64,000 nt of DNA from Liolophura sinensis (taxonomy: Eukaryota; Mollusca; Polyplacophora; Chitonida; Chitonidae): assembly GCF_032854445.1 (NCBI RefSeq), contig NC_088301.1:49215187-49279186 (forward strand), given 5' to 3'. This document shows positions 36,969 through 58,400 of the stretch, one piece after another; positions within the stretch are counted from its first letter, which is position 1, and each line of letters starts with the position of its first letter. The position numbers and the translations under genes were made by a program. The notes beneath the pieces are model-generated. The model ran no database searches and had not been told where the DNA came from. It worked only from the letters and a program-made list of their open reading frames with translations.

Positions 36969-37622
36969 ATGCTTTCTGTCTCTGTTCTACCATTGTCTGA
37001 ATTTGACATTTCTGAGCTCACAGGCTTCCTCCTGGAAAACACATTGGTAAGCCTCGTTGTTGATTGCATAGAATCCTAATGTGAGTATGCCTTGAATGAA
37101 GTAATGCCTTGGTAGGCAAGCTGAATAAAGGGAGGTAATTTTGAGACTTTCATCGAGATTTTGTTAAACCTGGTGTATTCGACTCTGATATTTACATAAA
37201 CTAATATGTTGAATTTACTAATGTATCACAATATCTGGTGATGTCATAATTATTTAATTACAAAACACTTTCTTTTAAAATGTACGTATTGTTTATATTT
37301 CCCAAATTTGAAGACAAAGTTACCACACAACTTTGATCCTTGGCATGTCTTTTCTTTGGTGAGAAAGCGAGAAAAGGTTAAAGAGGTAAGTTATTCTCTA
37401 CACTCTCAAGTATCTCAGGTTGCATTTAACAGATGGTCCACATTGTATACCAATGGAGGCATATCCGCATACAGCGGAAGGTGGTCACTTGAATGCAGAC
37501 ACACGAAGAGCAATAGCTGGTGATATAAAATGAAAAATATGTAAAGCAGTGATGCCGGGTTTCAAGCAAGCATTTCCGGCCTGTGTGGCGTCATTTCCGC
37601 TCGACTTAATGGTGTCTTTATG

Positions 37623-37624
<2 letters not shown>

Positions 37625-37664
<40 letters not shown>
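37625..37664. repeat. (ATT)n microsatellite
   Basis: About 13 perfect ATT units in intron 2 of the IDO relic. Confidence 0.9.
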
Positions 37665-38696
37665 GAGATATTATTAGAAAGCGTATATTCTTCCTAGTCA
37701 TCAATGTTTCGTATATAGACTATATAGCATCTACATGTAAAATGTATCAAATTTAGTATTTTGTTTTTTAACACAGGTGAACGATATTTTGGCATGTCTG
37801 TCTAAAACACACTGAAGTTTCATAAATGTATGATTGATTATTTTCTCAAAAAACGCTCCACAACTTAAGTGAGAATAATAATAATCCGAACAGGTGCAAT
37901 ATGGATTCAAGCATGAATGGCGTGCACTCATATTAATACATAAGACAGAGAGTAATACCAGAGCAGCGATAACCGTATGATGGTTTCATATGTACGTTTT
38001 AGTACACTTTCACTATTTCGTATGTAGTAAGGCACTTATACAGGTGTTTGACTCTATCATTTGTATTTTACCTATCCATCACGAACAAATGATATTTAAA
38101 ATGGACGTATTCCAATCAACCGAGTGGATTAACCCGTACATTGATTCTACCACCACGTTCCCGTCCGAGATAGCTCCGTGTTACAGGACAAGCGACGACA
38201 ACGCTTGGCTCATCTCCAGCTCTCTGTCATTGCTTCCGGCTATGTCTGGCAGGAGGGTAAGGATAATGTCGCAAAGGTATAGAATTCAGATATTAGATAT
38301 ACACTTTACTCTCTCCGCACGTTTTTGTGTCAAATTTCGCTTGTAGTAAAAGTTTATAACATTTAGCTTTGGCGCTCATGGTCAGCTGAATTGTGCATAT
38401 TTACAGATATTGTTCAGTGTGTGAACAAAAAAGAGAATAGACATCCTTTGAAGGTGACGTTTTCGTATTGGCTAAGCACCAACAAATCTATCATCTAATC
38501 CAGATAAATATTTATTTAATGACATGGCTCGTGCATTTGAGTACTTGCGAGTTCTGTTTTCCAGAAAAATATTAACGTATTGATTAAAGCTGGAGCCAAA
38601 TATAAAATAAGAAGCTTGTCGATTTGATTATAACAGATAATAAGGTGGATATTTAAGAAGACGTATATATAAAAATGATGATTTGATTGTAAAATA

Positions 38697-39040
38697 GATA
38701 TGTTACAGCATGAACATTCTGCTCGGAAGCCGGGTGAGGTAGGCTAGGTAGGGAAGGCGGAGAGTCAGACTTTGTATTGAGTATCATACCATTGCATTCA
38801 CGTACTCCCTACTCACTTTCCAGTAATGAGAACACATAAAAGCTGATAGTGAAGTTCATACTGAAGTTTTGCTAACAAAACTAATATAGAAAAGACAGTT
38901 TTATAGAACTGAAAAATATAGATATGTTACAGCATGAACATTCTTTTTGGAGGCGGTGTGAGGCCGGCTAGGTAGAGGAGGTGGAGAGTCAATCTTTGAT
39001 TTGAATGTCATACCATTGTATATTTTCAGGTACTCCCTGC
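38697..39040 (+). repeat. Duplicated exon 4 approach in the IDO relic
   Basis: Two copies begin GATATGTTACAGCATGAACA (38697 and 38921), run through GGCTAGGTAG and GGAGAGTCA, and reach GTACTCCCT. In the second copy this is the start of exon 4 after TTTTCAG. In the first copy the splice site has become CATTCAC and the exon breaks off after CTCCCTAC. Intron sequence after the exon (CCA-TAATGAGAA) is also shared, so the first copy is a duplicated exon region that lost most of its exon. Confidence 0.7.
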
Positions 39041-39191
39041 TGGTGTAACTATACCGCTACTCCCTGCTGGTGTAACTATACCGCTACTCCCTGCTGGTGT
39101 AACTATACCGCTACTCCCTGCTGGTGTAACTATACCGCTACTCCCTGCTGGTGTAACTATACCGCTACTCCCTGCTGGTGTAACTATACCG
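39030..39191 (+). repeat. Six-copy 27 bp in-frame tandem repeat inside exon 4 of the IDO relic
   Basis: Exactly six units of 27 bases, starting at the exon's first base, each encoding LPAGVTIPL in the ancestral frame. The intact gene has one unit here (LPVCVAIPL before WNVS). Units are nearly identical, so the expansion is recent and probably followed loss of function. Confidence 0.9.
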
Positions 39192-40609
39192 CTTTGGAAT
39201 GTTTCAATGAATCTTTTTGGAATGAATCTTTCTGGCAAACTGGCAGCTTGAAGATCCATCGTAGTACGTATATGTAAACCTACAGCATTCCAATCCCTTG
39301 CATATACTAAGTACTAAAGGCCATTGTGTAATGTATGTTTCCATGACTAATTTAACGCCAAGGCCCGTTTACATAACAAATTTTAAAAGAAAGTCAAATT
39401 CCAATAATGAGAAGGCATAAAAACTTTAGGAAAGTATCTGTGGTGGTTGCATTTGCTTCAATTTGCTTTCAAGTACTTCCAATGTTTTCCAACAGTGAAG
39501 TTGTGTAAATGTTCATGCGTTTTAATTTTTATTTGTTGTATTGTAATTCTTCAATCTGCTGTTATTATTTTTGGCCAGCTGTGAGTAAGTCCCTCATTTC
39601 TCTTTGTAGGCCAATATCCACTAGGTAAGCAGACACACTTTTTCTGATGTATGTATTATAACACAGCATATTGCTTCACAGCTTTAAAAGTACTTACGAT
39701 ACGAAAACTACAATACGATGTAAAGCCTGCTTTATTTTGAGAACAACCCAAGATTTTCAGTGATTTTGGAGGTAAACTATCCATTTAACACGTAATTAAA
39801 TTCATACGGAACTATAGGCGTGGCATTTCTCTTTCAGTAACGTGGTTGTCTTGTGCAGTTTGACTGGCAGGGAAGACGGTGACTGTCATTATTACCAACG
39901 TCATGGAGACGTAACTTGCAACTCCAATACATTGATATTTCAAGGCCACACTTCTAGCTCTATGTGTTCAGTTTATTTGTTTTTGTAATAAAATATATAT
40001 TTAAAATGTTTGTCGTTCTTCGTAGCAGTGGAGTGTAAAGGAAGCCTACTTTGTAGATACCGGCGACAGTGATGGTCTGTCGTGAGCATTGATAGCAATA
40101 AGAGACTCTCTAGTGATGATGAAAGAATCATTCTCTTAATTCCAAAGTATGTATGATTTTAGCATACACTTATACAAAACTGCATGTGATGTTATGTGCG
40201 CAAAAATGTTCTTAAAATGATATTTCCAAAACAAGAAAATGATTTTATTGGTGGAAAGATTGTAAACAATGTGTTAAGGGGACCAGGTTTCACGTAAGGT
40301 TAGTTTTGTTCGAAGAGTTTGTTCCGTTTCTAGTATGGTCAGTACATAGTTATTCACTCTTCGCACGCTGTTAGATATATTTAGTATGGCAAAGTATCTT
40401 TGAAAGAGCTAGATAGTAAAGATTGTATGCGATACAAAGGTGCATAGAAGTTACTATGTACGTCTTAATTATATCGTAAGTTTCAGACTTGAAAGCCTAG
40501 ATATATCTCATCAGAATGCAAATGGCCTGGTATGAATTGTTTTATCTATTTGATTATTGTTTTTCGCCCTTCTCAAGAATATTTCACATTCTCTTGTCAA
40601 ATTACGTCA

Positions 40610-40790
40610 GGTAGGGTTTTATTCTAACTATTCATATAAATAGTAGCAAATTACATGCACCCTAGCACCATGGCTTAAGCAGAATTAGGTAAAAACAATG
40701 CAGCGATATTAATTGCAATTTATTAGACCTCAATGGTCTATAATTACTCATCCATGGTTTTACTCTCTATACTGTAGGCATAAATAAGAA
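40610..40790 (-). repeat. Family A repeat with one arm inverted
   Basis: 40612-40688 is the reverse complement of the 5' extension seen at 28572-28647 (CCTAGCACCATGGCTTAAGC). Then 40755-40785 carries the forward 3' end (CCATGGTTTTACTCTCTATA, CTGTAGG). The copy lies where exons 8-9 of the IDO relic should be. Confidence 0.6.
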
Positions 40791-43700
40791 TATAATATTA
40801 TCATAAACATGTTGTTAGAAATGGACATTTATTCCTTGCCTGTTCCGGCAGCTATTCAGCGTATATTTATTTGTTACAGTGTGTGAGTGCCTCGGTCGGT
40901 CAAACTTCCACTGTGTCCAGCGCCAACGTCTTCCTGGACATTCAGCGTGAATTGGGTAAATATATTTACGGCTAGTCGGCTGGAACTTGTCATTTCACCA
41001 CAAGTGAATTATTTCCGAAATACGTATATGTAGGTACCATAGATAGACAGAAACATTGGTAAATTAGGTAAATGTCTTAATGCAGATGAAAAAAATCTTA
41101 ATTCTCCTATATTTCTGAAGTTAAAATTAACTGCTTCAGATGTTAGAAGTACAATGGGATGTTCTAGGGGATGCATCATTATTGTGTGAATGGGCAATTA
41201 AATATCTATACTTGTATTATGCACACCAGACCTATGGAAAGAATGTAGCGGTTGAATAGTTGAGCATCAGCATCAATCAATGCATATATACAATATAGAG
41301 TAATAATCGACTGGATGAACATATTCAGCGTTGGATTCGATTGGCAGGAAATCGCTTTGTGACACGCATCCCTTTTGGGAGTGACATCAATACTGGCGTG
41401 TTTCGTAACACTGGAGATATGTCGGCATTGACAACAGTTTGATGCTGACGGGCATCTCCGTCAAGTAACCAAATACGAATTCAGTACCAACCAACCAATC
41501 AACCACAGAAAAACCACAGTATATTTTGAAAAAAAAGAAGACAAGCTATACAAGATTTATGCAGCTGTTTTAGGATCGTCCCTCAACAAGAGAATTCCGT
41601 ATGCAACATATTTAAGTATTATTTAACAGAAATTCGGTTAATTAAAAAAGTCAGACTTTTAAATGAAATTTTAAATTTTAAACTGTATTTCTTTCCTTAT
41701 GGTGGTGTTATTGATCATACATTATTCGTCGAGACGTAGTACTACTTCTGCTTCTTTTCAGTAATGAATAGTTGGGATGAAGAGCTTCACAAAGCATACA
41801 ATCAGTGTCTGGCTGCTTTAATCGAGTTTAGGAATTACCAATCCGAATTTTGAAGTAAGTATCCATCAACTGATTTACAGTCTTACGGTTTACGGAGTAT
41901 TGTATATCAGTATAGGTGCTCTTGTCATAATCAGAATTTAACAATATTTTAGTATTTTTCTCTCTCTGCCTGTAGCTCCGCCTTTAGCTTTTTAGAGGAG
42001 GAAGTTGCTGGTGGAACGAGGGATAAGAAGCGTATGCAATTATAACCTCATGGCCCCTGGCAGTCGAGAATCAAAAATAAAAAAAATTCTACATTATAAT
42101 GATTCCGCAATTCATTGTCAGTATTATGTCGGCTTTGTGCCAATGAACTTTTGCCCAATAAAAATTGCCCGAATAGCTCATATTTAGGCAAGGGAATTTG
42201 GACAATAATCGGGGAAAGCGATAGCAAAGTATGCAAAAATAAATTAGTTCCACTGTTTATTAGGTGATTTCAGGGAAATTCCAACTTTCTTAACAACATT
42301 TACATTCAATTATCTCTACTTATATTGTTGTAATAGCTAACAAAAAAGGACCCGAAAAGAAAGCTGTCAAAGGTGATAAAAAGAACATTAGTTTACATTT
42401 TTTCCGTATTATTTTATTTTTTTGAGAAATGTTTGAGAACGCTTTTGGAACTGTTGAAGGAATTTGTATAAAATTGATGCTCTTTTTTAATTTCCATTCT
42501 GTTACCAGTCAAATAATAAAGGTGACTTTCTCTCTTGGTTGCAGAGGTTATGGAACAGCTCATGGGCTTTGGAACATGAGGATTACATCATACCGTGATA
42601 GCAACGCGTTAGGCATACATCAATTAATTTCATACCAGTGTACCATTTAACTGAATCATGTTATAGATTTCTTATTAATTAATCGTCTCCCGAGCTTATA
42701 GGTTAAGGATAAGTTCAGCAGTACAAAGTTTTTGTCGTTTTTTTTTTCTTTCTGGAATATATGTTGTCTATATACGAAGACAATATTATAATGCTAAACA
42801 GAAAAAGGAAATTCTGCACATGAAAATGTTGTTAATTTTCCCAAGCGCTGGTTTCCCTGCATAATGCATTTTCTTGTGAATCATTATAATGCCATTATTA
42901 TACTACTAAATTAGATAGCAGCTGGTGAAAAGTCACCTATTCATAGAACACGTACAGCAAAAAAACTTACTTTACTTTATGTGTCTTTAAACTTTGAAAG
43001 GTATTTTGATTGTATAAGAATTTATATTACAGTCTCAAACATTGTAATCCTGTGTCTTAGGAGTATCTGTTAAAATTAGCCGATTGTTATTGTTTGAAAA
43101 TCTATCATGATGAATTTGTGGTATTACTGTTGTTAAAACTTTTTAAAAATATGCTGCAAATAAACTTTTTCATGATTTTTTTTTTGTAAAACGTATTCTC
43201 AGTTGTTACTTCGAAGTAGCAAATTTTCTTTACTGAGATAGTTACCAGTCACACATTCTATACCAAAAGAGGATAGCTTCAATATTTACATTGTTAAGTG
43301 TTCTTCTTTGGATAGAAAGATACCAAAGAATCCTGCATATAGCGTGTACAGATTTCGCCTTGTAACATTTGTTATATCCTATGCGTTGTGTGACGAATTT
43401 AATCTTTACTCCATCAAACACCCAAAACATCGAAAGTTTCTGACATTTTATTGTGATTATAACATAGACTGAAGACTGTGTGCAATGTATTCTACGTCAC
43501 TGGTCTGGAAATACTCAAAATGCTCTGCCGTCATCTACAATCTATCAAAAGTTCAGTCAAACGACGGAATGGTTGTCGTAGCATTTTGCTACCATGGTAA
43601 CAATCAAGCGGGGTATGGATAGTAACAATAGGCAAAAAGTTTTTAGTTCTATCTAAAATAGACAAAATTCTAAAAAGTTAAAAACTAACAGTACAGAAAG

Positions 43701-44294
43701 TTACAGTGAATCATCAAGCTATTAATGCCCGTGAGATAATATCAACCAATCAGTGATCTGCACTCCCCAGCTCAGAGGCAAGACTGAGAGTGCATCGCCC
43801 TAAATAATTCGTAACTTGCACGTGACGTCATACCCGGCTAAATAGTTGTGTGACGTGGGTTAAATACTCTTCCCTGACGGGAATTTTCGAGACTCCGATC
43901 AGCTTTTACTATTTGGCGTTGTTTTACATGAAGTTCACTAGTGACGACTTGCTTGCCACCAATATAAATTCCGATTTCCTCCAAGTCCTATAACATTAAA
44001 GAATAGAATAGACCAGCCGCCATCTTAATAGTGAGAAATTCTTCAGAATGGCGTTAAGGCAACAATAAAAAAAATTGTGCATGTCACCAATACAACAGAC
44101 GAACAGAGGAAGGGCGAGTTAAGAGTTAAGGTTTGCTTGCCATTCTCTGTTTTTCCAAAAAAAAAGGTTCGATGGACATCAAATTAACTCATTTTAGAAA
44201 ATGAGAACTCCTCGAAATGTCCTCGAAACCGCTAATTAACTTATTTGGCGATACTGTCCATCCGATTTGAATGTGTTTATTAAGGAGAGTACGG

Positions 44295-44530
44295 ATGTAT
44301 GTTACGTGTTCTACGTCATACTATGCAATTTTTCAGTCATATGACGACGAGCAGTCATTAGATACGTATACATAGACTGTGTCTTTTTGTGGCAGAGTGA
44401 GTCCATGGCGTCAGTCATCCACTGAAGTATCATGCCAAATACACCAGACACGACACCCCACCCTTCAGTCACATTAGACCGACACCGGGTCAGCCAGTTC
44501 CAGTTCCTTGTTCAAGGCTCTCAGTGCTGA
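44295..44530 (+). repeat. Partial copy of a widespread repeat
   Basis: CAGTCATATGACGACGAGCA, GTGGCAGAGTGAGTCCATGG, CGTCAGTCATCCACTGAAGT, ACACCCCACCCTTCAGTCAC and CGACACCGGGTCAGCCAGTT. I recall these words in this order from other molluscan genomes, after a TGCTTGGGGTTTAACGTCGT head. That head appears separately here at 25442. Confidence 0.5.
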
Positions 44531-44857
44531 AGGCGTTAAGGTCCGTATGCACCAACAGGGATTAAGTTTTGGGTTAAGTCAGGATATACTAAACGCTACA
44601 TAATAATCTTAATCGTATCTGCGCCAAGTTTGAATTAACTAATCTTGAGATTATCTCTTTGGCTCAAGCCTAACTTCATATCACTTAACAGTGATCAGAT
44701 GATTCCATTGCTGACTCATGTCATTGGTATTTAATTTAAGGATGGCTTTGCCGCATATATATGACTGATCGTTTGGTATGATATAGCGCATTTTTAACAT
44801 CGCTGTATTCCATGCACAGCATCAGAATATCTGTCTATAGTATAATGTATTTTTAAA

Positions 44858-45240
44858 GGAAAACGCATCAAAACTTTATCTAAACTAGACGAAAAATTGC
44901 TACTAGATTTGATTGAATATCATAAATCTGTGATTGAAAACAAATGACATGACGGTGAAGCAATGGTGCAGAAAGAGCACGCCTGGACATTGATAGCGAG
45001 GCGTTGCAAAATGGGGCGTATCCCAATTAAAAACCCAATAGGAAAATGCAAGAGCAAATGCAAAGAAAGAAATTACCACCAAAACAACACGAAAGACACC
45101 AAACAGGAGGAGGTACAATGAGTAGTTCAGAGGCATATCTCCATACACAACTAACTTCTGCTAACATCGCTTGATAACCCTTCTGATGACGGAAATGGGT
45201 CATCTACGCTTGAAACTAACGCGAAACCATGAGTTAAATT
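44858..45240 (+). pseudogene. Broken Myb/SANT-like DNA-binding domain gene
   Basis: The first frame reads LDEKLLLDLIEYHKSVIENK, then a stop at 44945-44947 where the family continues with a charged segment, then KEHAWTLIA. A frame change gives RKMQEQMQRKK and RHQTGGGTMSSSE. The last part ends in DNPSDDGNGSSTLETNAKP. The order of a helical EKxLLLxLIExHK-IENK start, a W-x-x-IA helix and a TGGG end is that of the Myb/SANT-like domain often found in animal regulatory or Harbinger-associated proteins. At least one stop and one frameshift make it non-functional. A transposon origin is possible, but no nuclease partner was found. Confidence 0.6.
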
Positions 45241-47084
45241 CTGACCGGCATGTAACAACTGCGTGAAATAAGGGTTTTTTCGCTGTTCATTAAAAGCCCA
45301 TAATTTATCCTTTCTCCAGTCAATTTTAATCCAGCTCATGTCGATTTTTCCTTGACCTGACTTACACATGATAGAAAACAACTTTATACATGGATGGCTT
45401 TTATCGGGTTCTGCTACGCGTGGACAATCTTTCAAAAGTTATAGCAGAAAAAATGACCATATTCAAATAGAACTGCAGAATATGATATTGTTGGCAAGTG
45501 ATATAAAAATATCTGGATACTACTTAACAGCCAAAACTGTTAAATGAACAGAAACCCGGCTGAACCATGAGCCGCGAAGAGAAAAATCCCCAGCATGCAA
45601 AACTCCGAATGAAAAAATGAAATTGTTCAACATTAAAATTAAAATATGCCACAGAGCAACACAACCTAACATGGAAATATTGCGTACACAGATAAAGGCC
45701 GTGTCTACTAGACCTGTGTCTGAGACAAAGTGCGATATCGTGTGTGGATGTCGACGCTTGAAAACAGGTCAAAGAGATTTGAACGATCACGCTCATGTGG
45801 TTCTGTTCGATCTTGTGCGTCGAGAGCGTATAGAAAATCCACCCTTCCAATTTGGAAGCAAACAGCCAAATGCTCATCTCAAAGTTAAATCTACCTCAGG
45901 GGAAGTTCAAGAAATATTCAAGCTCTTTAAACAATAACTTAAACTAATCGAGGTTGGTGTATCACGAATTACCTTTTTATCTCAACTTAAGGCAAACTTA
46001 AACCGAGTGACGACTTAAACCATTTTCTTGCATACGGGCCTAAAGTCTATTTTTAGTCTTAAGTATGACTGGGAAAGGAGTAAGACATAGTAAGGTGTAG
46101 ACGCAATATAGACTGACTTGTTACTCATATGAAAACAAATCTGACGGAGAAAAGAACAACTCTCAATTGTGAAATTGGAATTTTCAAACTGTATTCAGGC
46201 ATGTATAACATCTATTTGTTTCGTACGCTCGCCGGGGGGAACGAATCAACGCATGGCACGACTGAACTCCCATAGTTCAGGCAGTGACCTATTTTTGAAC
46301 GCACTATGCAAAGTTAACAGGATTCAAACACGCACTGTGCGGCATATAGGTATCGCCTCAGCGCACTTTTGTCGTGGGGATATAGGGCATTCGGGTATCA
46401 ACACTGGTAAGACACGTAGACTAGATGTAGATAGTCCTATAACATGCAGATATTACATCTAAGTAAGGTGAAAGTGCTTAAGAAATCTTCTATAACGGCC
46501 TACTCTGTCACAACAAAGGCACTCTTATACATGAGCTCTCGGATAAGATGGTGTAAACGTTCTAGAGCTTTTGGTCAGCTATCATCATCCAAGAGAGCCT
46601 CACTCACACTGGTGTAGTCGCTCTATACCTTGGTAGCCGCATACTGCCACCGTTCATATGCTGATCCGATTGTGTCAGCTGAAGTAACGGCTCACGATCC
46701 TCTCAATATGTAATATTGGACCTTACGTTGTGTGCAATGATATGATTGGCCAGACGTGGTTTGGAAAAGTCGACACAAGGCACAGTGAGATTATTTCGTG
46801 AGTGCCCTGTTTTTGAACCTGGAATTATCAAGACTTAGCACTGATACGAGTATTCTTGTGTCATAAATGATAGTGTATCAGTAACAGAGCTTGGGAGAAG
46901 TTTTCCACAGCTTTTCTGCGTAGCCTTGACCAAATTTGTTTATCATAAGTTTAATTCTAATAGATAACAAATATATTTACACGGTAGTATATTTCACCAG
47001 GTAATAAAAATTCATCAGGTTGTAAGTTTTAATAGTTAGCAAAAATAAGTAGAATTAACCTGATTTCTTTCCAACCAGTTTCAC

Positions 47085-47480
47085 AACCATGACCGTTTTT
47101 AGCAGATGGCCAGTTTCACCGAACACAGCCAGTTTTCATCAGATGACAGGTTTCACAAGTTGGTCAGGTTTTATCACATGACAAGTTTCAACTGATGCAG
47201 TAAATTTCAGTCACAAGCCAATTTTCATCAGATGACAAGTTAAACTACAGACAGTTTTCATCATATCGGAGATTTCAATAATTAGACAGTTTCTATTAGA
47301 TGGCAAGTTTGAGCTAAAGATGCATTTTTCATGAAATTGCAAGTTTCATTAGAGAGCCAAATTTAATCACATCAGAAGGTACACTAGGTAGCCAGTTTTC
47401 ATCAGATGACACGTTTCACTGGGTAGCCAGTTTTCATCAAATGGCAAGCCTGACGTGGTTAGTTTCACCAGATACTAGCT
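47085..47480. repeat. Degenerate minisatellite upstream of the IDO gene
   Basis: About ten units of 35-40 bases built on TAGCCAGTTTTCATCAGATG followed by ACAAGTTTCAC. The best preserved units are at about 47130-47165, 47215-47245 and 47390-47450. It ends about 300 bases before the start codon. Confidence 0.8.
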
Positions 47481-47570
47481 CTGTCATAACAAATGTCATT
47501 TGATCATGTCAATATTCAGCTTTTTAGACTGATCACAAAATAATGGCCTTATACCAAGAGTATAAATTTA

Positions 47571-47578
47571 CGTTAAAA
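47571..47578 (+). promoter_or_regulatory. Possible TATA box of the IDO gene
   Basis: TATAAATT lies about 200 bases before the ATG at 47774. No initiator or start-site evidence is available, and the region is AT-rich, so this may be chance. Confidence 0.2.
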
Positions 47579-47773
47579 ATAGCTAGTAAATTATACCGTG
47601 ATGATTATGCAAATATTCGTTAAGCACCAATGAACCTGACATACGTCGAATAAGTTTAAAATTTTAGACTACACCTGTAAACATTTATCACATAAATCAC
47701 ACAATTTTACAATTGCCTGTATAACTATGTTTTAGACATAAACATATTCCTGAAATCATTCCAAAGCGGAGTT

Positions 47774-50700
47774 ATGTCGACAGTCGTTCCACTTAAACTG
47801 TCTGAGTTCAACATTTCTGACTGCACGGGTTTTCTTATCGAAGATCCCTTGGTAAGTAAGTTCTAAGCTCAAAAGGCATTGATGTTTAGCACAGAGAGTA
47901 AAAGCAAAGCATGGACGACAGTGTGTTAATTGTCAAATAGTCATACGCAACCGGTGAAATATGGCCTATTAAATAATTCATCACGCTCAGCCGACTGGTT
48001 TATTTTAAATACCGTTCTGATATATTTTGACAATCGATGAAAATACTGATTAATTTTAGAAGTACGAGTCAGTATTAATTTGAAAAATTAATACTTCAGT
48101 CAACATATTTATTTAATTCGATTTCTATAAACATTCATGGCATTTGTTGAAAGGAAAGATTACCAGAACCATTTGAAGTATGGCATAAGTTGGCCAAATC
48201 ATTACCAGAATTGGTCAAGAAGGGAGTGTTCCGAGATGCAGTCGACGAGGTAGGAACATTTTTGTGTAAACATATTGTGTAAGAATAATCATTCATCCGT
48301 GAATAATTTTTTTTACTAAAACCGTATTGTATATATTTTGTCTCTTTGATGTTGCGAGAGCCTAGGATACGAATTAGTTCGCTTTTATTTTGACTAAACT
48401 TTTTTGTTGTTCCATTTCAGGAGTTTACATTTTGTCACAATCATAAAATGACGTAAAACTTCTACTTCTTATCAGCCTAATACGTCCCTTGCTGTTTATA
48501 GTCTGGAAATTCTCCTCTTCTCTGTTGGCATCTTTCACCAGCTTCCTATCCTAGATAGTTCCGTGTTGAAGGACGAGCGACAACAACGCTTGGCTCATCT
48601 CCAACTCTCTGTTATTGCTTCCGGATATGTCTGGCAGGACGAGAACGTACCAAAGGTATATTGCTATGCCGATGTGTACGGGTTTCAGTTTTAGGCATTA
48701 AGAAGGCTTTTCTGAAGATTTACATGACTAATCTTGTCAACAGATGCAACAGAAAAAGTGTTCCTGTTATACATTAATAATTTATAACACATATATGCGT
48801 TGCTGTTTATTAGTTCCCTACGGGTATCAGACCAGATTATAGGTGTGTCCGTCTGTCAGTTCATCAGTCGGTCGGGCCGTCACGAAATAGTTTTCCGGAC
48901 ATTTTTTTCATAACGTTCTGGGTAGAAACATCATGTTGTTTTGTTCATTCTCAACGAAAATATGGCCGCTTTGTGCAATTATGGACACTGATATACTTAT
49001 GAGGGCTCAGATCATTTGGGACATCTATTGTAAGAGCAGAATTTCCAGATCTTGTGTAAGACCCGTGCCACTTATATCAAAAGCATTTTAGGCGAAATGC
49101 ACTGAATTCTATTTTTATTCTGTTTCTTCTAGAAACTCCCAGTTTGTGTGGCAATACCACTTTGGAACGTCTCAGAAACTCTTGGTGTAAAGCCTGTCGT
49201 CAGTCACCCAGGATTGTTTCTAGCTAACTGGCAGCGTAAAGATACATCAGAGTAAATGCGTTTATCGTTTATAATGGTTCCAGCTAAGGAACGATCAATT
49301 GAATAAATATAAATAAATGATACTTAACGACTGTCACTCAGTGCTCAGACATCAGTGGAGGCTTCCAAACACAGGAATTTCCTTTTTCGTTTTTAGAAGT
49401 GAGTTGGTTGATAATTAGCTTACCATAGCAATTATTTAAGACTTCGCCCCGCGTCGTAACAGAAAAGTTGCGGATGGTCGTGGGTTTCCCCCGGCTCTGC
49501 CCGGTTTCCTCCCACCATAATGCTGGCCGCTGTTGTATAAGTGAAATATTCTTGAGTACGGCGAAAAACACCAATCAAATAAATAAATAAATAATTCATA
49601 ATAGAAAAACAATAATTTGTCCTGACCTTGATGTGAAATTAAACTAACCTGATATCCTGTAATCTTTACTATAAACAGCCATAAAATGTATCACCTGCAT
49701 AACAAATGCTTGTTCTCACGTTTATACTACTAAGTGTTTTTTTATTTGCTATTCACATTATTTTTTTTTAGATTACCGTCGCTTAGGTATGTATCCCAGC
49801 TCTATATATTGTGAGGACTAGCGATTCTATTATGTAATTTGCTTTGTTTGTAGTAACTACTCTGTGCCACAAGTAAACATCATTCTGTCTTTTAAGTAGT
49901 AATTATTCTGTGTCTCATGTAATAACCTTTCTTTCTTGTAACTAGTAACTATTCTGCTATGTAATCATTTTCTTAAGAAAGTAGAAACCATTTAGTCGTT
50001 TTAATTGTAGTTATTCTATTTCGTAAGCACTAATCAATATGCCTTGTAAGAAATAACCATTCTAGCTTCTAGATATACATTTTTGCAGCGGAATTTCTAG
50101 TAATTTTCCTGTATGCATTACTCATATTTAAGAAAGAAAAACATGACGGTGAAAAATGTTACTGCAAGCAACTTGTTTTCTTTTCAGTAACATGCGTTGT
50201 CTGTACAGTCTTCCAGGAGGAGAAGATGCGGATTGGTTTCTTATAATTACCAATGCCGTTGAGTTGGAGTTTGCACCAGCTCTTAAGGTAATTAAATACA
50301 TAATTCAATCATTAGTTTGTATTTTTAATCTATTGACATGAGACAAGTCACACTTGCTTTCAAATTTGTAAACATACTGTTGTACTAATGACAAAAATGA
50401 CACCATGACATAGGTACACGGGGAGAGAAGTCTAAGCATATGTTTGCTTCGTAATGTTCATGAACGTGCTATTTGGAAACCACCAGAGAGTCTGACATTA
50501 GCTGCTGTTTAACTCAGGGAAATGGGACACCGGACTGGGGGCCACGTGCCAGCTCAGCTAGTCTACCCAGATGAACGGGACACCAGGCTGGACGCGATGT
50601 GGCCGTAAAGCTGGATGGCCTAGGGGAAAGAGACACCGGGCTGGATGTCACATGGCCAGTTCAGGTCGGGTCGACCCAGAGGAACGGGACACCCGCCTGT

Positions 50701-53700
50701 ACAGCACATGGCGGGCTTAGCTGCATGTTCGACCAGTGGGTCACAGTGGGTGGGTTATCGTCCACTTGCTGTACAACTGCTGTGTCTGATGCGCAAGTCC
50801 TTTTAGCAAAATTAATAAGTTTTCCAATGTATGTTTCTATTTCAAATCTATGCTTCGAAACATACATTCGTATACATTCGATACGTAATACAAACATTTT
50901 ATCTATATTTAAATGCAGGCACCTTAAAACACACGGTTTCACTCCTTATAGTTTAAGCAGATTAAAACCGTACGAATAACAAATGTAATTTTTTGTATCA
51001 GTGCATTGTAAATGGCGCTTACTCTATGGATATTGGGGACATGGATGGTCTGGCATCGGAACTCATTGGAATACGAGATGCTCTTGTAAATATGAAGGAA
51101 ACCTTCACTAATATACACGGTACGTTCTGACATGCCTTAATCTGAAAAACAAATGTTGCCTATATTATGAATATTTAGTTGTATCTGAAAATCGTTGTCT
51201 CACAAAATAGAAAATAGAGGTATAAATAGGCATTAAACGATTCAAAACCATCAGATAATTATCTTCAAATAACAAGCTTGTTAATATTTTCCAGATAAAG
51301 TTAGCCCAGCAGCTTTCTACAACGATTTACGTCCTTTTCTAGGAGGGTAAGCATCATGATTGTTAATTGAAGTGAATTGAACCGAATTGAATGTTTCTTC
51401 ACCATACCTAAATATACGTATAATGACATATCTCTTAAATGGCGGGAATAAAGTCCGATGGTCTTGTTCAATCACTGACTCATCAGTATCAAATAATAAC
51501 ACGTTTGTTAACACGTAACAAGTTTGTTCCCAAAAGTGTTGTCTGTGTAATTTCTATAAATGTTTTGAAGCCAAACTTATTCAGTGGTGTTTAAAAGTGT
51601 TGGCTTTTGTGATTTGGTACCTTCTATTAAGTATTGTCATTATTTGACCTTCAACCTCTTATTAATGGTTTTGACTCGAACCTTTGAATTGGTTTAATTT
51701 GAAGCCTTTATGTTATTCGTGTACAAGCCCTGTTAGTCTTTTATTTACAGATGGGGTAAGGAAGGGTCTGCTTTACCAGATGGTCTGTTGTTTGAGGGTG
51801 TCAGTGATGTGCCTGTCAAAGTAAGCCAGCTTGCGATTTATTTGTATACATTTATATTTCGTGTTATATTCCTAAAATACGCAAAAGATCAAAACTAGCA
51901 AAGCGCGTGGATCTGTTTCAGCTTTATTTGGTAACTGTTTACTTCTTTCGACCTACTCGCTTAGGCGTTGGAGTAACATTCCAAGAAATGTACACTTGTT
52001 TTATGATCAAAAATTCCGCATTCAGATCATGCAATCGAACGTGAACGTACACTTTCCTTTGCTTATTTGGAAGAACTATTTGTCTTAGAAAATTGTTTCA
52101 CTAGCGAAAATTGGTGATGGGGCATATATATATATTGTATATATATATATTGTGTAAGCTCTGCGTGTCTGTATTCTTATATAGTGCATTGGTGACACTG
52201 GGGCTCAAACATCGATATTTGCCTGCCTGGATGCCTTCTTGGGCATACAGCACTCACAACCAGGTAGGAAGGCGCACTGTCTCTCATAAAACAGTAAGAT
52301 GGCCAATTGGACAATTTCGAAAAGCACACATCGCCTAAGAAATGACAAAGTCAGATATTTTAATTTTATTTCACGTAAAATTAATTACATAAAAGAATTT
52401 ACAAATTTTAAAAAAATATATTCTATTAACTGAATACATGTACATTGAGTATATATATTATCGGCGACACTGAAGAGTCAAACGGACCGAGGTATTATTT
52501 GATTGTAATTTATCGTCCTACTCATAAGGATGTCAAAAGAAGAAAAATGGGTACAGATCAGAGGAAATTACTTCTTTTTTCTCGGAATGTGACGAATCAA
52601 TACTATAAAAATCCAGCCGTAGAATTGGAAGCTATATTTTACAGTCACATAAAGTTTATTTACCATTTGGTTTTGTCCGTCACAGAATCCAAAACATTCC
52701 TCCTGCTAATGAAGGACTACATGGTACGTGAACACAGAATGTTTGTTGAAGCCTTGGAGAAACGACCGTCCACTCGGGAATTTGGTAAAACTGTAGTTGT
52801 TTCTGTATATGTAGCATATACTGATCCAATTTTAGGTTATAAACAAAAACGAAGAAGCCATAACTACTTTACCTTCCAAATTTAGCCCAATATATATATA
52901 TATATATAGAAACGACTCCAACTCAAGAAAGCATACCCTATACACTTAGGGTTTGATGAACCATATATAGGCAATTCACCTAGCTTGAACATACACAAAT
53001 CATTTGTTAAGAAAATATATGCTAACAAGTAACAATTAACATTGACAGTGGAACGCCATATTAAAGTTTCATAAGTGGAGACCTAATTTCCACAATGTAA
53101 CAAAACGTATTCAGTGCTTATCAAGCAAGTTGATAATCCACAAATATCCTCTAATACGCTCGTCACTTTTATTTCTTTTCAGTAGTGTCTAGCTGTGATG
53201 AAAAGTTAAAGGGCGCCTATAATGACTGTTTGACTGCGGCTGCAGATTTCCGAAGCTTCCACATCCAAGTTGTAGCCAAGTAATTTCGATTTATTTTTTT
53301 ACTGGTGTTCAAATTGAAAAAAAGTCTGCTTATAGTCATGGGTATCAGGGAAAATATATAAAAGGCAAGAAAATAGAATTATACATAAGGGATTGACAAT
53401 ATTTCGCACACGTAGCCATAGTGTAGAAGCTCTTAAGGACTTGGCCAATCACAAGCCATGAAATCGTCACGTGAACATTGGCATCGAAGTCACATAATTT
53501 GTCGGCTCTTGATTGTTAGTTTTTCTTCAAATGGTTCTTCAAAAACCGCCACTGATGTACAAATTAAGGCTTGAGGTTCTTTTAAGAGTTAAATGGAAGC
53601 ATTTTGGTCTGGATAATCATAAATTTATGTAGAACTTAGAGCAAGTACCAGTGTCGCCATGTCTACATGCTGGACAGAGGGCTGGAGTAATTTGTCAGGG

Positions 53701-55365
53701 CGAGCTGACAATAAGAAAATTTCGTTGCATACTTTTTCCTCAGCCAGAATTATTCTTCACAACATTGGCAGAAATGAATCTAATCTATATGAAAGGCCCT
53801 ACTGTGTACATTCCTTGATGCATACAGCCAGGTAATGTTGAAACCCCTGCAGGCGGAGATGAAAATGTAAACGACCATTGAAAGATATTTTTATTTGTAT
53901 ATTTCCCTATCAAAATGTTGATGTCTGATCATGTCGCGCGACCTTGTTTAATACAAAATGGCACAGGAGAACTCCAGTGTAATGAGAAGTCAGTCTGGAC
54001 AGATGCATCACAAAATGTCGCCCACAAATGAGTGACTAGGTAATTTGCTATTTATTCTGTTCACTGGCCTTGGGGAATGAATTAAACGTTTTAAGAACAC
54101 CTCTTGAATACTTCTTTGGGAATTGATTCATATTTAGTAGTTGACTTTATTTTTACATTACTTCGGACTGGAGAAATTTTCACTAACAGGACGGTGGTAA
54201 GGTTTTTGGATAGAGAAACCCGGAGTAATCGGAACATTCTCGACTACTTGTTTCATTGATAACTATGGATGATATCGAAATTGGATGGATGATATCGATA
54301 TCGCGGTGCAAGATAAATCCCGATTTTGATGTCTCCGTAACGACTGCGTAGATATCAGGGGGGTTTTGTCAAACATTCATTTAACAAAACTGTAGACAAA
54401 TTATTACTCACAAAGGTTAAACACGTGTAGACATTGTCTAGAGGGAGTGTGTTCAAGACAAGCAATTTATCCACGTACGCAAGTTTGTGCTGAGACTGAT
54501 CTTCCCTAAGCGTGATGCCGTACCAGCCGTAGTTATGCCCCTTGAACAACTTTTCTCCACTCGATGGAATGAGAAATGTTACGTTTCCCGTTAATAATTA
54601 TAATAACTCTTTTTAATATTTAATATTAAGCGTTTTTTGCCAACGTTTGTTTTCCAGATATATTGTGTCAATGGCAAATAAGGATCAGCAGGACAGTAAG
54701 GAGAAATCAGAAGATAAAGGCACCGGAGGAACAAGTAATACTCTTTTAATCAAACCTGAATAAAAGTATTCAATTCCATTTAAATTCAATGTTTTAAATA
54801 GTACAATTATCACAACTCTTCTACCTTTACAATTCAGGTAGTATGTATTACATTGTGAGCTCAAGCTTTTTTGCATTTGCTACTTCTTGTCATATATATC
54901 AAACCCCATAACATAAAACATAATTTTCACCCGAAATAAAAAAGTATCCAAAAGACACCCTGAATCAAAGGAAGTTGACATTCCAATATAGCAGCCGCGA
55001 AGGGTAGTAGGCGTAAAGTATTGATACATTATAAGACGGAAAAGGTTTACCTGATGAAATATCAGACTGTGGCAGCTGCTCTGGAGCTATAACATGGTAA
55101 TGTATTTAGGACAGGTGCATATTTTCCAGACTCACTATTTTAATCCATCGGACCGGACAGATTGCTAATATATGCTGAAGATGCAACGGTGTTTTTTTGT
55201 CTAATTCATTAGGTGAAAGTCCACTTATCTAAATAATATCAGGTATCTGGATGAAGCCATTGTTTAGTGCCGCTGAAGTAATCAATCTTTTTCATGTTTC
55301 CAGATGTCATGCCGTTTTTGAAGGGTTTAAGGACTGAAACTAAAGACAGCGTCATAACGAAGTGA
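47774..55365 (+). CDS. IDO: Indoleamine 2,3-dioxygenase family haem protein, 14 exons, complete
   Basis: IDO cleaves the indole ring of tryptophan to N-formylkynurenine in the cytosol; in abalone and relatives an IDO-derived protein serves as myoglobin. Exons: 47774-47851, 48154-48249, 48542-48655, 49133-49251, 49772-49786, 50188-50287, 51002-51119, 51295-51346, 51751-51820, 52185-52263, 52686-52784, 53183-53279, 54658-54734, 55304-55365. All introns are GT-AG, and the join is 391 codons plus TGA with no frame conflict. Landmarks: QRLAHLQLSVIASGYVW; LFLANWQRKD; Phe158 and Thr162 at the positions of human IDO1 Phe163 and Ser167; Phe221, Tyr222, Arg226 for Phe226, Phe227, Arg231; GDTGAQTS for the human GGSAGQSS loop; proximal haem ligand His340 (SFHIQ); and mobile-loop KGTGGT at 366-371. 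Length matches the family (about 400). These features favour an enzyme. Known family members are interferon- or substrate-regulated, but nothing here shows regulation. Confidence 0.93.
49465..49600 (+). repeat. SINE-like element in intron 4 of the IDO gene
   Basis: GGATGGTCGTGGGTTTCCCC, CGGCTCTGCCCGGTTTCCTC, CCACCATAATGCTGGCCGCT, then GTATAAGTGAAATATTCTTG, AGTACGGCGAAAAACACCAA and an (AAAT)n tail. It is the copy closest to 20600-20800. Confidence 0.8.
49772..49786 (+). other. IDO: 15-nt micro-exon 5 of the IDO gene
   Basis: ATTACCGTCGCTTAG lies between a long T-run ending AG and GTATGT. It takes phase 2 from exon 4 and passes phase 2 to exon 6, restoring residues ELPSLS between KDTS and NMRC. 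Human IDO1 has a few extra residues here (PNKPLTYE), so a direct exon 4 to exon 6 splice would leave a gap. The relic copy keeps an equivalent 15-nt exon at 39610-39624 with intact splice sites. Confidence 0.8.
49850..50075. repeat. Degenerate short tandem repeat in IDO intron 5
   Basis: Repeated words of the type GTAGTAACTACTCTGTG, GTAGTAATTATTCTGTG, CTAGTAACTATTCTG and GTAGTTATTCTATTTCGTAA, spaced roughly 45-60 bases apart between micro-exon 5 and exon 6. Confidence 0.6.
50515..50740. repeat. GC-rich minisatellite in IDO intron 6
   Basis: About four units of 55-65 bases with the core ACGGGACACCAGGCTGGA and CACATGGCCAGTTCAG. The GC content is strikingly above that of the surrounding intron. 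The last unit is the most diverged. Confidence 0.75.
52115..52155. repeat. (TA)n tract just before IDO exon 10
   Basis: Two TA runs separated by TTGTATATAT end about 30 bases upstream of the exon 10 acceptor at 52184. Another TA run lies at 52889-52910 after exon 11. Confidence 0.8.
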
Positions 55366-55447
55366 TAATGCTTATGGATCGGTTCCAGGATGTTTTGTTT
55401 CGGGAAAGGCAACAAATGCAAAGTGGCAAATAGCGGTCGTTGTCAGA

Positions 55448-55453
55448 AATAAA
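55448..55453 (+). terminator. IDO: Polyadenylation signal of the IDO gene
   Basis: AATAAA 83 bases after the stop codon, followed by the GT-rich GCTGTGGACTGGATTGCTTG. This spacing and order fit a cleavage and polyadenylation site, giving a short 3' untranslated region. Confidence 0.55.
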
Positions 55454-58400
55454 GCTGTGGACTGGATTGCTTGCGATATAGTGACGTGGATTATCTGTGC
55501 AACCATCAGTCCGATTTGTCATGTATATAATAATTCACTAATCAAGGAAGCAATCCTTGCGAAATATAGACATATTTTAACAATATTTTGTAACTCATTA
55601 TGTGGCTTTACTTATTTATTGTTGCATAGCATCAAACTCAAGATTGATTTACTTTAATAAATCGTGAAATTCAGTTTTATGGATAGATGGCTATCGTTAT
55701 GTTTATTTAATACTGATGTGCCATGGTGATTTATACAATCTACGAACAATTTACAACGTGACGGTCAATGTATCAAATTTAAAATGGGATCGTATCTATA
55801 TTATCAGAGACTAATTAAACTGGATTAAGGTAATATTCTGAATTATGGTTTTCCTCTTCACATCAGGTGAGGCGGATAGCTGCAGCGTTGACACATCCAT
55901 TCACATCTTATTATTTGGTATGAGCAGCTGCGTTTGCTGTAAATATCCGTATGGAATACTAGTATACAAGCAGTATACAAAGGTACGGTAACGAATTGAC
56001 TGAAATCTATCCCAAAGCTTAGGTACGTTTTTAAGTAAGTCTTTTTCAGGCCAATGTGAAGTGCATGTCAGTCTGTAAATGTTCACTTCACTAGCAAAAC
56101 ATGGGGAGTAACTCTTGCTGCTGTCGACAAAATCAGCATCAAAAAAGTGGTGAATGTACGTGGCCTGTTAAACATAATTGTTGGCTTTCACTCTATTTAC
56201 TTTAGAGCTAGAACCTGGCAACAGGAAATTAACCCGTTACAAGCATATCAAGATTTTTGCAGTCATGGAAGACGATCTGAGCTCGAATCCAGTTTAGACT
56301 GCGGCTTTAGGTCAGGACTTTTTGTCAGGTAACTGATGGCTTCCTCGGAAGATTTAACAACCTTGTTCATTGACGAGTTAAACAAAAAATTCGATTTACT
56401 CAACCAATAGATAAATAAATAAATTCTATTGAGTTTTATATGGCGTAAAATATTTTATTTACACCACTTTAGTGAAAAATGCAGGTGGGCAGAGGAAAGC
56501 GGACATATTTACCCTCCTGTTATGTATATCAGTCGTAAGCCTTTAATCAGCAGATGTTAAGAAATCAGGAAACTATGTTAATCTTTATTGGGTAAGGCGA
56601 TTTTTATTTACTTATCTCTGAGGTACAGATATCAAAAAGAGCTTTGATATACAGCAGATTACGACATCCATGTCGAAAGAAAAATCAGCACAAAACATGA
56701 CTTCCACCGAAAGATGATCCGAAGATCACTACAGTAAGGTATATGTTTCTCTTATCGGTACAGCATTACACGCGAACATGTTTGGTGCCCCGTGCCTAAC
56801 GTTTATATTATTTAATATATTTATGTATATGTTTTATTTATTTATAATACATTTATGTATGTTTTAATTGGTATTTTGCGCAGTTTCAAGAATATTTGAC
56901 AGCGGCTATGTTTATGAGGTTGAGAACAGGGCCGATGGGAACTAAATGCACCTCGTCAAGTACTGATTTGTTACTACTAATCACTTGGACTAGAACTCCC
57001 GACTATTGACCTTCTGGCAGAAGCCTTTACAGTCTGAAGTCTCATTGTATGGCCACCCGAATTTGTACACGCCCATAAAGTAGATGTGAATATGTTACCG
57101 GCATGCCTGGTGATCACACCATATGGATCTGACATGTCTGACTCCAACCATTTACGTATAGGTCTGCGGGTGAAGATAATGTGAAATTCATGCAGGTTGG
57201 ATAGAGAACCAGACACATCGGATAAGTCTACCTCCTGTCTTTCGAAACCCCAAAGCCATATGTTACACGCAAAGGACGAAACGAAAATCATTGGCAGATT
57301 TGCATTCAATTAAGTGATAACATCTGGGATGCAGTCGGTAAAAATTTGATTACTCCAGTTCCCCACTAGCTTTTACATTTCAAGCAAATACTCCAGGGAC
57401 CCATTCTAAAATGCGCACGTAACTTTGCGACAAGTACAACTATTATGGCAAGGTATCTCATCAGTATGTGTTACCATATGGCAGTTACCCTCCCGCAAGT
57501 TTGTGCACGCTTTGTAGAACGGTCCCCTGACCATAGATAATGTCCAGGTTGTCCTTCGTTAAATTATTCTTACAGCCTTTGTATCGCATAACATTCTATG
57601 TTGGATACTAACGTCTACAGTTACTTCTCCAGACTAAGAGTTCGAGGCAACACTGTTTATTTAGGCAAGAATAATTTACTGTCTTTAGTGTGGTCAGTTT
57701 TATGAGTTAGTCCGCCCTGATTTGTGTTTAACTTTATAACAATGTATTGGTCAATTCGATTTGCAACTTGTACCTTAAATTAGTGATTTTAGGGTTTTAT
57801 GTCCACAGATGATCTATAAGGATGCACAGTCTGAAGGGATCCATTTATGCTATATAAAATATTTTACTAGCACTGATAATTCGATTTGCAAGCACGACGT
57901 CGGAGGAAATCAAAAGTTAGAGCGATGTAAAACAGCAATTACTTTATTCAAGTTTTAAAGTAACGGATATCGACCGATCGATGCTTGAATGCTGAGATGT
58001 GTCGTGTGTGGGGAACATTAACTCTTATCACCGCACGAGTTTATCTTAAGTCTCTCTAACCGCTTGGTGTAACCTTTGGAAACAAACGCTAATTTAAGCC
58101 ATACTAATGTATTGATGTCTTTGTTGTCAATGATACCACCTTGGTTTAACTGAAGCTGAGCTGATGCGATGGTGGAGTAACCTTGAGCACTACTGTAGGT
58201 TTCACTTTTTAATTGGCATTTTTTTCAAACTCTTTATACGGATTAGCTCCGTTATCGCTTAAAACTGACTGACTAATTTGATATAAAGTGCAGAAATCAA
58301 ACAGACTTGTCGCCATCTATTGTACGTTGCTTTATACTCATCTTGCTTTGTATATTAAAGGCAAACTGATTTGACACTCACCACCCCGCTCTTGTATGCT

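What the first reader, a model, noticed from the sequence alone, without database searches (positions are those of the whole stretch)
36969..55365. Tandem IDO pair: one complete gene, one relic with shared intron positions
Seen: at least ten exons of the relic line up with exons of the intact gene, including a 15-nt micro-exon, and most keep the same phase. This shows duplication of genomic DNA. Known: in some gastropods an IDO copy became an oxygen-binding myoglobin. Inference: one copy degraded here while its sister was kept, so this locus may record an early or failed step in that gene family's history.
Basis: partly seen in the sequence, partly recalled or inferred. Interest (0 to 1): 0.75.

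Follow-up and report, generated by a model that had tools for sequence, protein, structure and literature searches.

The report
Chiton IDO gene beside dead twin
A complete tryptophan-degrading-type gene in a chiton sits next to a broken old copy of itself, which looks like an ordinary duplicated pseudogene and gives no support to a link with the abalone muscle oxygen protein.

Summary
The window has a complete 14-exon indoleamine 2,3-dioxygenase gene (A, 47774-55365, 391 aa) and, 10.8 kb upstream on the same strand, a relic (R, 36969 to about 42600). With A masked, R is the best place in the window for 10 of A's 14 exons: five strongly, five marginally. The 15-nt micro-exon is supported by splice geometry; exons 8 and 14 are tentative; exon 9 was not found. 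R carries stops, frameshifts and lost splice sites. Assembly statistics identify the chiton Liolophura japonica. Two more intact 14-exon IDO genes (B, C) lie elsewhere. A and R are sisters (100/97) against B, C and human IDO. Their silent sites differ strongly (dS 1.36) while the protein stays 58% alike, so R probably worked long before it died. Exon 3 looks gene-converted. The myoglobin link is not supported: this species has a published globin myoglobin, and A/R split after the lines to B and C; no gastropod sequence was available for a direct tree. The one unusual lead is paralogue B, which has lost Arg231.

The parts
47774..55365 (+). Gene A: complete 14-exon IDO gene, 391 aa. Exons 47774-47851, 48154-48249, 48542-48655, 49133-49251, 49772-49786, 50188-50287, 51002-51119, 51295-51346, 51751-51820, 52185-52263, 52686-52784, 53183-53279, 54658-54734, 55304-55365
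   Evidence: the spliced aligner gives the same exons up to 55362
49772..49786 (+). Gene A exon 5, 15-nt micro-exon (phase 2 in, phase 2 out); same length and phase in B and C
36969..37046 (+). Relic exon 1: open, 78 nt as in A, donor kept
37314..37385 (+). Relic exon 2: 72 nt against 96 (24 nt shorter, frame kept), both splice sites kept
   Evidence: (marginal, 36 v 34)
38157..38276 (+). Relic exon 3: open, 120 nt as in B and C (A has 114); acceptor AG is AC; 95/111 aligned bases equal A, candidate gene conversion
39030..39263 (+). Relic exon 4: holds a perfect 27-nt x 6 array in its 5' part and a net 20-nt loss that shifts the frame; 3' border uncertain (39260 or 39263)
39031..39193 (+). 27-nt minisatellite (6 identical copies, 9 codons each, in frame) made from the start of relic exon 4; no other match in the genome at up to 2 mismatches
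39610..39624 (+). Relic exon 5: 15-nt micro-exon placed by its two splice sites, length and position
39838..39932 (+). Relic exon 6: acceptor kept, 5-nt loss, TAA in the aligned frame after it, donor lost
   Evidence: (marginal, 33 v 32)
40029..40146 (+). Relic exon 7: 118 nt as in A, both splice sites kept, in-frame TGA and TAA
40300..40333 (+). Relic exon 8, tentative trace (start approximate)
   Evidence: 2 of 60 shuffles as good; not in the top 3
40880..40955 (+). Relic exon 10: open, 76 nt as in B and C (A has 79), both splice sites kept
   Evidence: (38 v 31)
41556..41598 (+). Relic exon 11, recognisable 3' part, TAG in the aligned frame, GT kept
   Evidence: (40 v 35); nucleotide test not significant (48 of 60)
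41762..41854 (+). Relic exon 12: 93 nt against 97; by my alignment one base is missing in the codon of the heme-ligand His, and three further on
42320..42381 (+). Relic exon 13, partial, acceptor lost
   Evidence: 38 v 29; nucleotide test 8 of 60 shuffles as good
42545..42602 (+). Relic exon 14, tentative, acceptor AG kept
   Evidence: reading; not in the top 3, nucleotide test 14 of 60

Best explanation
A tandem, DNA-level duplication gave two IDO genes in the same orientation, after the lines to paralogues B and C had split off and most likely within the chiton lineage. Both stayed under purifying selection for a long time, while introns diverged beyond recognition and silent sites diverged strongly; during that time exon 3 was probably homogenised by a short gene conversion. 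Later the upstream copy (R) lost function and is now an unprocessed (duplicated) pseudogene. The downstream copy (A) is intact and probably an IDO2-like, low-affinity tryptophan or indole dioxygenase: the heme-ligand His, Phe226, Arg231 and the distal Thr are present, but the 262-264 loop is altered. Shown: gene anatomy, lesions, A+R sister relation, divergence. Inferred: order of events, gene conversion, chiton-lineage origin, A's activity.
For: Intact A. R matches A's exons in order, with micro-exon geometry. Lesions: 4 stops in 245 aligned codons, two of them in the strong exon 7; frameshifts in e4, e6, e12 (read); e3 acceptor lost. A+R 100/97; R branch 0.72 v A 0.061. Relative-rate counts R-unique v A-unique: 35 v 18 (B), 38 v 8 (C), 24 v 13 (hIDO2), 27 v 13 (hIDO1). 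dS 1.36, dN 0.30 against neutral simulation: at d 0.68 mean identity 0.28, 0 of 1000 reach the observed 0.577. At 80 sites where A=B=C, R agrees at 59. Exon 3 silent differences 8/26.7 v 94/135.7 elsewhere, p 1.7e-4. Residues.
Against: No RNA data: R could still be transcribed. The relic blocks were picked because they were recognisable, which inflates identity. In the simulation, d 0.30 gives 8.6% and d 0.19 gives 99.8% of runs at or above the observed identity, so long constraint depends on the dS estimate. The relative-rate test with hIDO2 is weak (chi2 3.27). The best high-identity segment runs from the end of e2 through e3 and e4 into e6, not e3 alone, so lineage-specific constraint is an alternative to conversion. 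Five of the ten matched exons lead by little and lose rank 1 with B or C as query; two of the four stops lie in such exons (e6, e11).
Confidence: 0.85

Rival explanations
1. One reading: the locus records an early or failed step of the IDO-to-myoglobin change known from abalones.
For: IDO-derived myoglobins exist in vetigastropods (PMC4191572 passages). A has a changed 262-264 loop. No gastropod sequence was compared, so it is not formally excluded.
Against: The animal is a chiton. A and R split after the lines to B and C. A keeps His346, Phe226, Arg231 and GTGG. L. japonica has a published globin myoglobin (PMC6351634 passages) and globin matches.
Confidence: 0.03
2. R died at once after duplication (classical immediate loss).
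For: R has many lesions and changes faster than A.
Against: With the divergence implied by dS, neutral decay gives about 28% identity, not 58% (0 of 1000 simulations). dN/dS about 0.22.
Confidence: 0.07
3. R is still a functional locus: a truncated protein, a regulatory RNA, or a source of variable repeats (the 27-nt array keeps the frame).
For: 13 of 14 listed splice junctions keep GT/AG; exons 1-3 are open; the array is a multiple of three.
Against: The e3 acceptor is lost, which breaks the open e1-e2-e3 chain. Stops in e6, e7, e11, frameshifts in e4, e6, e12, no trace of e9. No transcript evidence could be sought.
Confidence: 0.04
4. R is an assembly artefact or a haplotype copy of A.
For: Heterozygosity of this genome is reported as 1.24% and the assembly was purged of haplotypic duplicates (PMC11068029 passages), so a left-over copy is conceivable.
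Against: R and A differ at 246 of 735 aligned coding bases and show no aligned intron sequence, far beyond allelic difference.
Confidence: 0.01

Closest known systems
Vertebrate IDO1/IDO2 tandem pair
   Same: Two neighbouring IDO genes from duplication (PMC11593294 passages). A scores closer to PDB IDO2 (295 bits) than to IDO1 (about 254) and has the distal Thr that the same review ties to low tryptophan affinity.
   Different: Here one of the two is dead; the tree puts the IDO1/IDO2 pair on the other side of a 100/98 branch, so the duplication is independent.
Abalone IDO-like myoglobin (Haliotis/Sulculus diversicolor)
   Same: IDO family; its introns are drawn in figure 4 of PMC4191572 (legend seen only).
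   Different: Reported from vetigastropods lacking conventional myoglobin; this chiton has a globin myoglobin.
Ordinary duplicated (unprocessed) pseudogenes (from general knowledge)
   Same: Intron-bearing copy next to an intact relative with stops, frameshifts and splice losses.
   Different: Probably a long functional life before loss, an exon-sized high-identity block, and an in-frame minisatellite born in an exon.

Membership tests
IDO family (PF01231), gene A | Whole-length family match | tested here: met
   353 bits over residues 9-386, cut-off 26
IDO family (PF01231), gene A | Heme-ligand His346 and residues Phe226, Arg231 of human IDO1 | tested here: met
   H, F, R in A; position 227 is Tyr as in IDO2
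IDO family (PF01231), gene A | GGSA loop (261-264); bears on activity, not taken as defining the family | tested here: not met
   GDTG in A, GGSA in C and in IDO1/2, RASG in B
IDO family (PF01231), gene A | Tryptophan dioxygenase activity | not testable with these tools
   needs expressed protein
Unprocessed (duplicated) pseudogene, relic R | Keeps exon-intron structure of its relative | tested here: met
   10 of 14 exons found apart and in order, micro-exon geometry and 13 of 14 listed junctions
Unprocessed (duplicated) pseudogene, relic R | Disabling lesions | tested here: met
   4 stops in 245 codons, frameshifts (read), e3 acceptor lost
Unprocessed (duplicated) pseudogene, relic R | No full-length open transcript | not testable with these tools
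   no RNA reads available
Gastropod IDO-like myoglobin | Nests with gastropod IDO-like myoglobins in a tree | not tested
   I had no gastropod IDO sequence
Gastropod IDO-like myoglobin | Occurs where conventional myoglobin is missing | tested here: not met
   25 globin matches, exon by exon; L. japonica globin myoglobin in print (PMC6351634 passages)
Gastropod IDO-like myoglobin | Reversible oxygen binding without tryptophan turnover | not testable with these tools
   needs spectroscopy

The most novel reading that the evidence does not exclude
This chiton has four IDO loci, and the intact distant paralogue B (C7:39665834-39675595) is no longer a tryptophan dioxygenase: Arg231 is Val, the GGSA loop and the GTGG motif are gone, but the heme ligand His346 and Arg343 remain. 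B would be a heme protein derived from IDO outside gastropods, an independent parallel to abalone myoglobin, while A/R show the family's turnover on the same chromosome.
Probability: 0.3. Interest if true: 0.5.

Novelty: new member of a known kind. Interest (0 to 1): 0.27.

Why it matters
It adds to IDO family history a case in which an order of events can be inferred (long shared function, exon-scale homogenisation, then loss), and gives the IDO complement found in one chiton genome: three intact 14-exon genes and one pseudogene. It takes away the support for a tempting link to abalone myoglobin. Paralogue B offers a direct test of whether IDO has given rise to non-enzymatic heme proteins more than once.

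Tried and rejected
Rejected: retrocopy (exons lie apart); haplotype artefact (246 of 735 coding bases differ; introns do not align); support for the myoglobin link. The first exon-2 boundary of A was wrong and gave a broken frame; corrected. The spliced aligner missed B's micro-exon; I found it by reading and checked it. On R its strict mode cut exon 4 short inside the 27-nt array, and both modes proposed exons around e7-e10 that I did not accept; R's exons were placed by hand and the scan. One search stopped on a length check and was redone. The clade test used a wrong method name, so no AU test was run; support is bootstrap/SH-aLRT only. Paper searches for a molluscan IDO pseudogene (4 papers, none on it by title or abstract start) and for chiton plus indoleamine (1 paper, on a scallop by title) found nothing on this locus; they cover only the held open-licence library. 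No fold was predicted: that tool asks for proteins read letter for letter from the DNA, and these are spliced.

Rows dropped before counting: relic e5, e8, e9 and parts of e1, e2, e3, e4, e11, e12 and e13, e14 outside the listed blocks were left out of the 245 aligned codons; 4 stop codons were set to X for the tree and left out of the dN/dS count (241 codons).

Full report
What is there. The window is G000:C7:49215187-49279186 of a 609-Mb assembly of 632 contigs. Gene A was assembled from the sequence: 14 exons, 47774 to 55365, 13 introns all GT-AG, one open frame of 391 aa. Pfam gives IDO alone at E <= 0.001, 353 bits; the best PDB relatives are IDO2 (295 bits) and then IDO1 (about 254). The PDB rows print no species; I take them as human, and their mutual identity of 44% in my alignment equals that given for human IDO1/IDO2 in PMC4191572.

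Is the relic more than chance? With 47001-56000 masked, each exon of A was scanned over all six frames of the window. R was rank 1 for 10 of 14 exons: e1, e2, e3, e4, e6, e7, e10, e11, e12, e13, all in order on one strand. Five of the ten (e1, e3, e4, e7, e12) are far ahead of the next place; e2, e6, e10, e11 and e13 lead by less, and these five are not rank 1 when B's or C's exons are the query. Exon 5 is a 15-nt micro-exon; similarity cannot judge it (6 of 15 bases), but at least 70% pyrimidines before AG, exactly 15 nt and GTRAG occur together once in the window, both strands, and that place is 39610, between e4 and e6; without the pyrimidine demand there are five such places. A cruder nucleotide shuffle test supports e8 (2 of 60 shuffles as good), but not e9 (53 of 60), e11 (48), e13 (8) or e14 (14). 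Phase: e1, e5 and e7 have A's length, e2, e3 and e10 differ by multiples of three, e4, e6 and e12 have lost the frame.

Lesions of R. Exon 3 has AC where A has AG at the acceptor; 13 of 14 junctions listed keep GT or AG, though some exons were placed with their help. Outside that list the e6 donor and e13 acceptor are lost, the e4 donor is unclear, and the e11 donor, e12 donor and e14 acceptor are kept. There are four stops in 245 aligned codons: one in e6, two in e7, one in e11; those of e7 are the firm ones. From the sequence itself I read a net 20-nt loss in e4, a 5-nt loss in e6, and in e12 one base missing within the codon of the heme-ligand His plus three further on. Exon 2 is 24 nt shorter in frame. 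The start of exon 4 has grown into six identical copies of a 27-nt unit, which is in frame; a genome-wide pattern search at up to 2 mismatches found these 6 copies only.

Organism. Eight mollusc-type hemocyanin matches in a row on C8 (that this Pfam domain is molluscan is recalled) fit a mollusc. The contig lengths 96,433,062 (C1) and 60,359,117 (C7), printed, and the 632 contigs equal those of the Liolophura japonica assembly in PMC11068029 (passages). The total here is 609,464,459 bases against 609,495,693 in the paper. It is a chiton, not a gastropod.

The family in this genome. A protein search at E <= 1 gave 22 matches, which fall at four loci: A, R, C7:39.67 Mb (B) and C1:18.24 Mb (C); gaps and withheld stretches of the assembly were not searched. 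B and C were fetched and modelled. Each has 14 exons with the same order and start phases as A, with the 15-nt micro-exon; B's exon 4 uses a GC donor. B is 394 aa and C 395 aa; both match Pfam IDO (292 and 383 bits). So shared intron positions are ancestral to the family here; they rule out a retrocopy but say nothing about age. R keeps the B/C lengths of e3 (120 nt) and e10 (76 nt), whereas A has 114 and 79; by parsimony those two indels arose in A after the split, and R is not a copy of A as A is now. TDO matches are also present (3, two over the cut-off).

Relationship and history. On 245 codons R is 139/241 identical to A, 99/241 to B, 85/241 to C. The tree joins A and R at 100/97, with R's branch 0.72 and A's 0.061; the order of B, C and A+R among themselves is open. 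Relative-rate counts show a smaller asymmetry: 35 v 18, 38 v 8, 24 v 13, 27 v 13 with B, C, hIDO2 and hIDO1 as outgroup. dS between R and A is 1.36 and dN 0.30; without exon 3, 1.93 and 0.34. If R had decayed freely from the start, at half the dS of 1.36 the protein identity would be about 0.28; 0 of 1000 simulations reached 0.577, and the same held at d 0.40, 0.50 and 0.95, but at d 0.30 8.6% and at d 0.19 99.8% did. At 80 sites where A, B and C agree, R still agrees at 59; at 65 sites where R, B and C agree, A agrees at 59. R was therefore probably kept by selection for much of its life. A rough calculation from these numbers (inference) puts its free decay in about the last fifth to third of the time since the duplication. 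The simulation starts from A rather than the ancestor, uses one substitution rate, and the blocks were chosen for being recognisable. That the duplication happened within chitons is inferred; no other molluscan sequence was compared.

Exon 3. It is 95/111 identical to A against 394/624 elsewhere; silent differences are 8 of 26.7 sites against 94 of 135.7, p 1.7e-4. A-B and A-C silent differences in exon 3 are about as high as overall, so the exon is not generally constrained at silent sites. The similarity starts within a few bases of the exon border and is weaker after the A-specific 6-nt gap; the introns show none. A short gene conversion is the likeliest cause. Against it: the best high-identity segment runs from the end of e2 through e3 and e4 into e6 (0 of 20000 permutations as good), so special constraint on this part in the A/R line is possible.

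Function. In human IDO1 numbering, A has His346, Arg343, Phe163, Phe226, Tyr227, Arg231 and Thr167; C has the same with an intact GGSA loop; B has Val at 231 and lacks the loop and the GTGG motif. The review PMC11593294 (passages) names Phe226, Phe227 and Arg231 as critical for IDO1 and ties a distal Thr in place of Ser167 to low tryptophan affinity. I infer that C is the standard IDO of this chiton, A a relative of unknown but plausible low-affinity activity, and B probably not a tryptophan dioxygenase. The numbering was fixed by recall (Lys13 as the first aligned residue); the letters that the review names (Ser167, Phe226, Phe227, Arg231) fall in place.

Myoglobin. PMC4191572 (section 10 part 1 read, other passages) says IDO-like myoglobins occur in several vetigastropod families that lack the conventional one. 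Chitons have a globin myoglobin in radular muscle, and that of L. japonica itself was sequenced (text and reference seen in PMC6351634); 25 globin matches, exon by exon, lie in this genome. The pair A/R therefore gives no support to an early or failed step of the gastropod change. A direct tree with gastropod sequences remains to be done.

Verdict. A correct observation of an ordinary thing, a duplicated pseudogene beside its intact sister, with two less usual details (probable late death, probable exon-scale conversion) and one lead outside the window (paralogue B).

Noticed in passing
G000:C7:39665834-39675595 (L001, L002): Intact 14-exon IDO paralogue B has Val at the Arg231 position, RASG for the GGSA loop and no GTGG motif, with the heme ligand kept; its exon 4 uses a GC donor. 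Candidate non-enzymatic IDO-type heme protein.
   Followed up: partly
window 39031-39193: Six identical 27-nt copies, in frame (9 codons), grown out of the first codons of relic exon 4; no other match in the genome at up to 2 mismatches. Perfect identity suggests a recent expansion inside a pseudogene exon.
   Followed up: yes
window 7951-8727 and 32179-32958: Two Major Facilitator Superfamily open frames (258 and 259 aa), about 65% DNA identity to each other over 760 aligned bases: a second pair of relatives in the same window.
   Followed up: partly
window 49469-49620, also about 5091, 5277, 10342, 14232, 19711, 20675, 27128, 40531: A roughly 130-bp interspersed repeat, with a copy in intron 4 of A and an inverted piece inside the relic; 41 matches listed genome-wide, with 2916 first-look candidates of which 40 were scored.
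   Followed up: partly
G000:C8:37880506-37891931: Eight hemocyanin beta-sandwich matches in a row, about 1.4-2.0 kb apart, possibly one eight-unit hemocyanin gene.
   Followed up: no
window 38691-38813 and 38915-39041: A direct duplication of about 125 bases, 80% identical, between relic exons 3 and 4, reaching the start of the exon 4 array.
   Followed up: no
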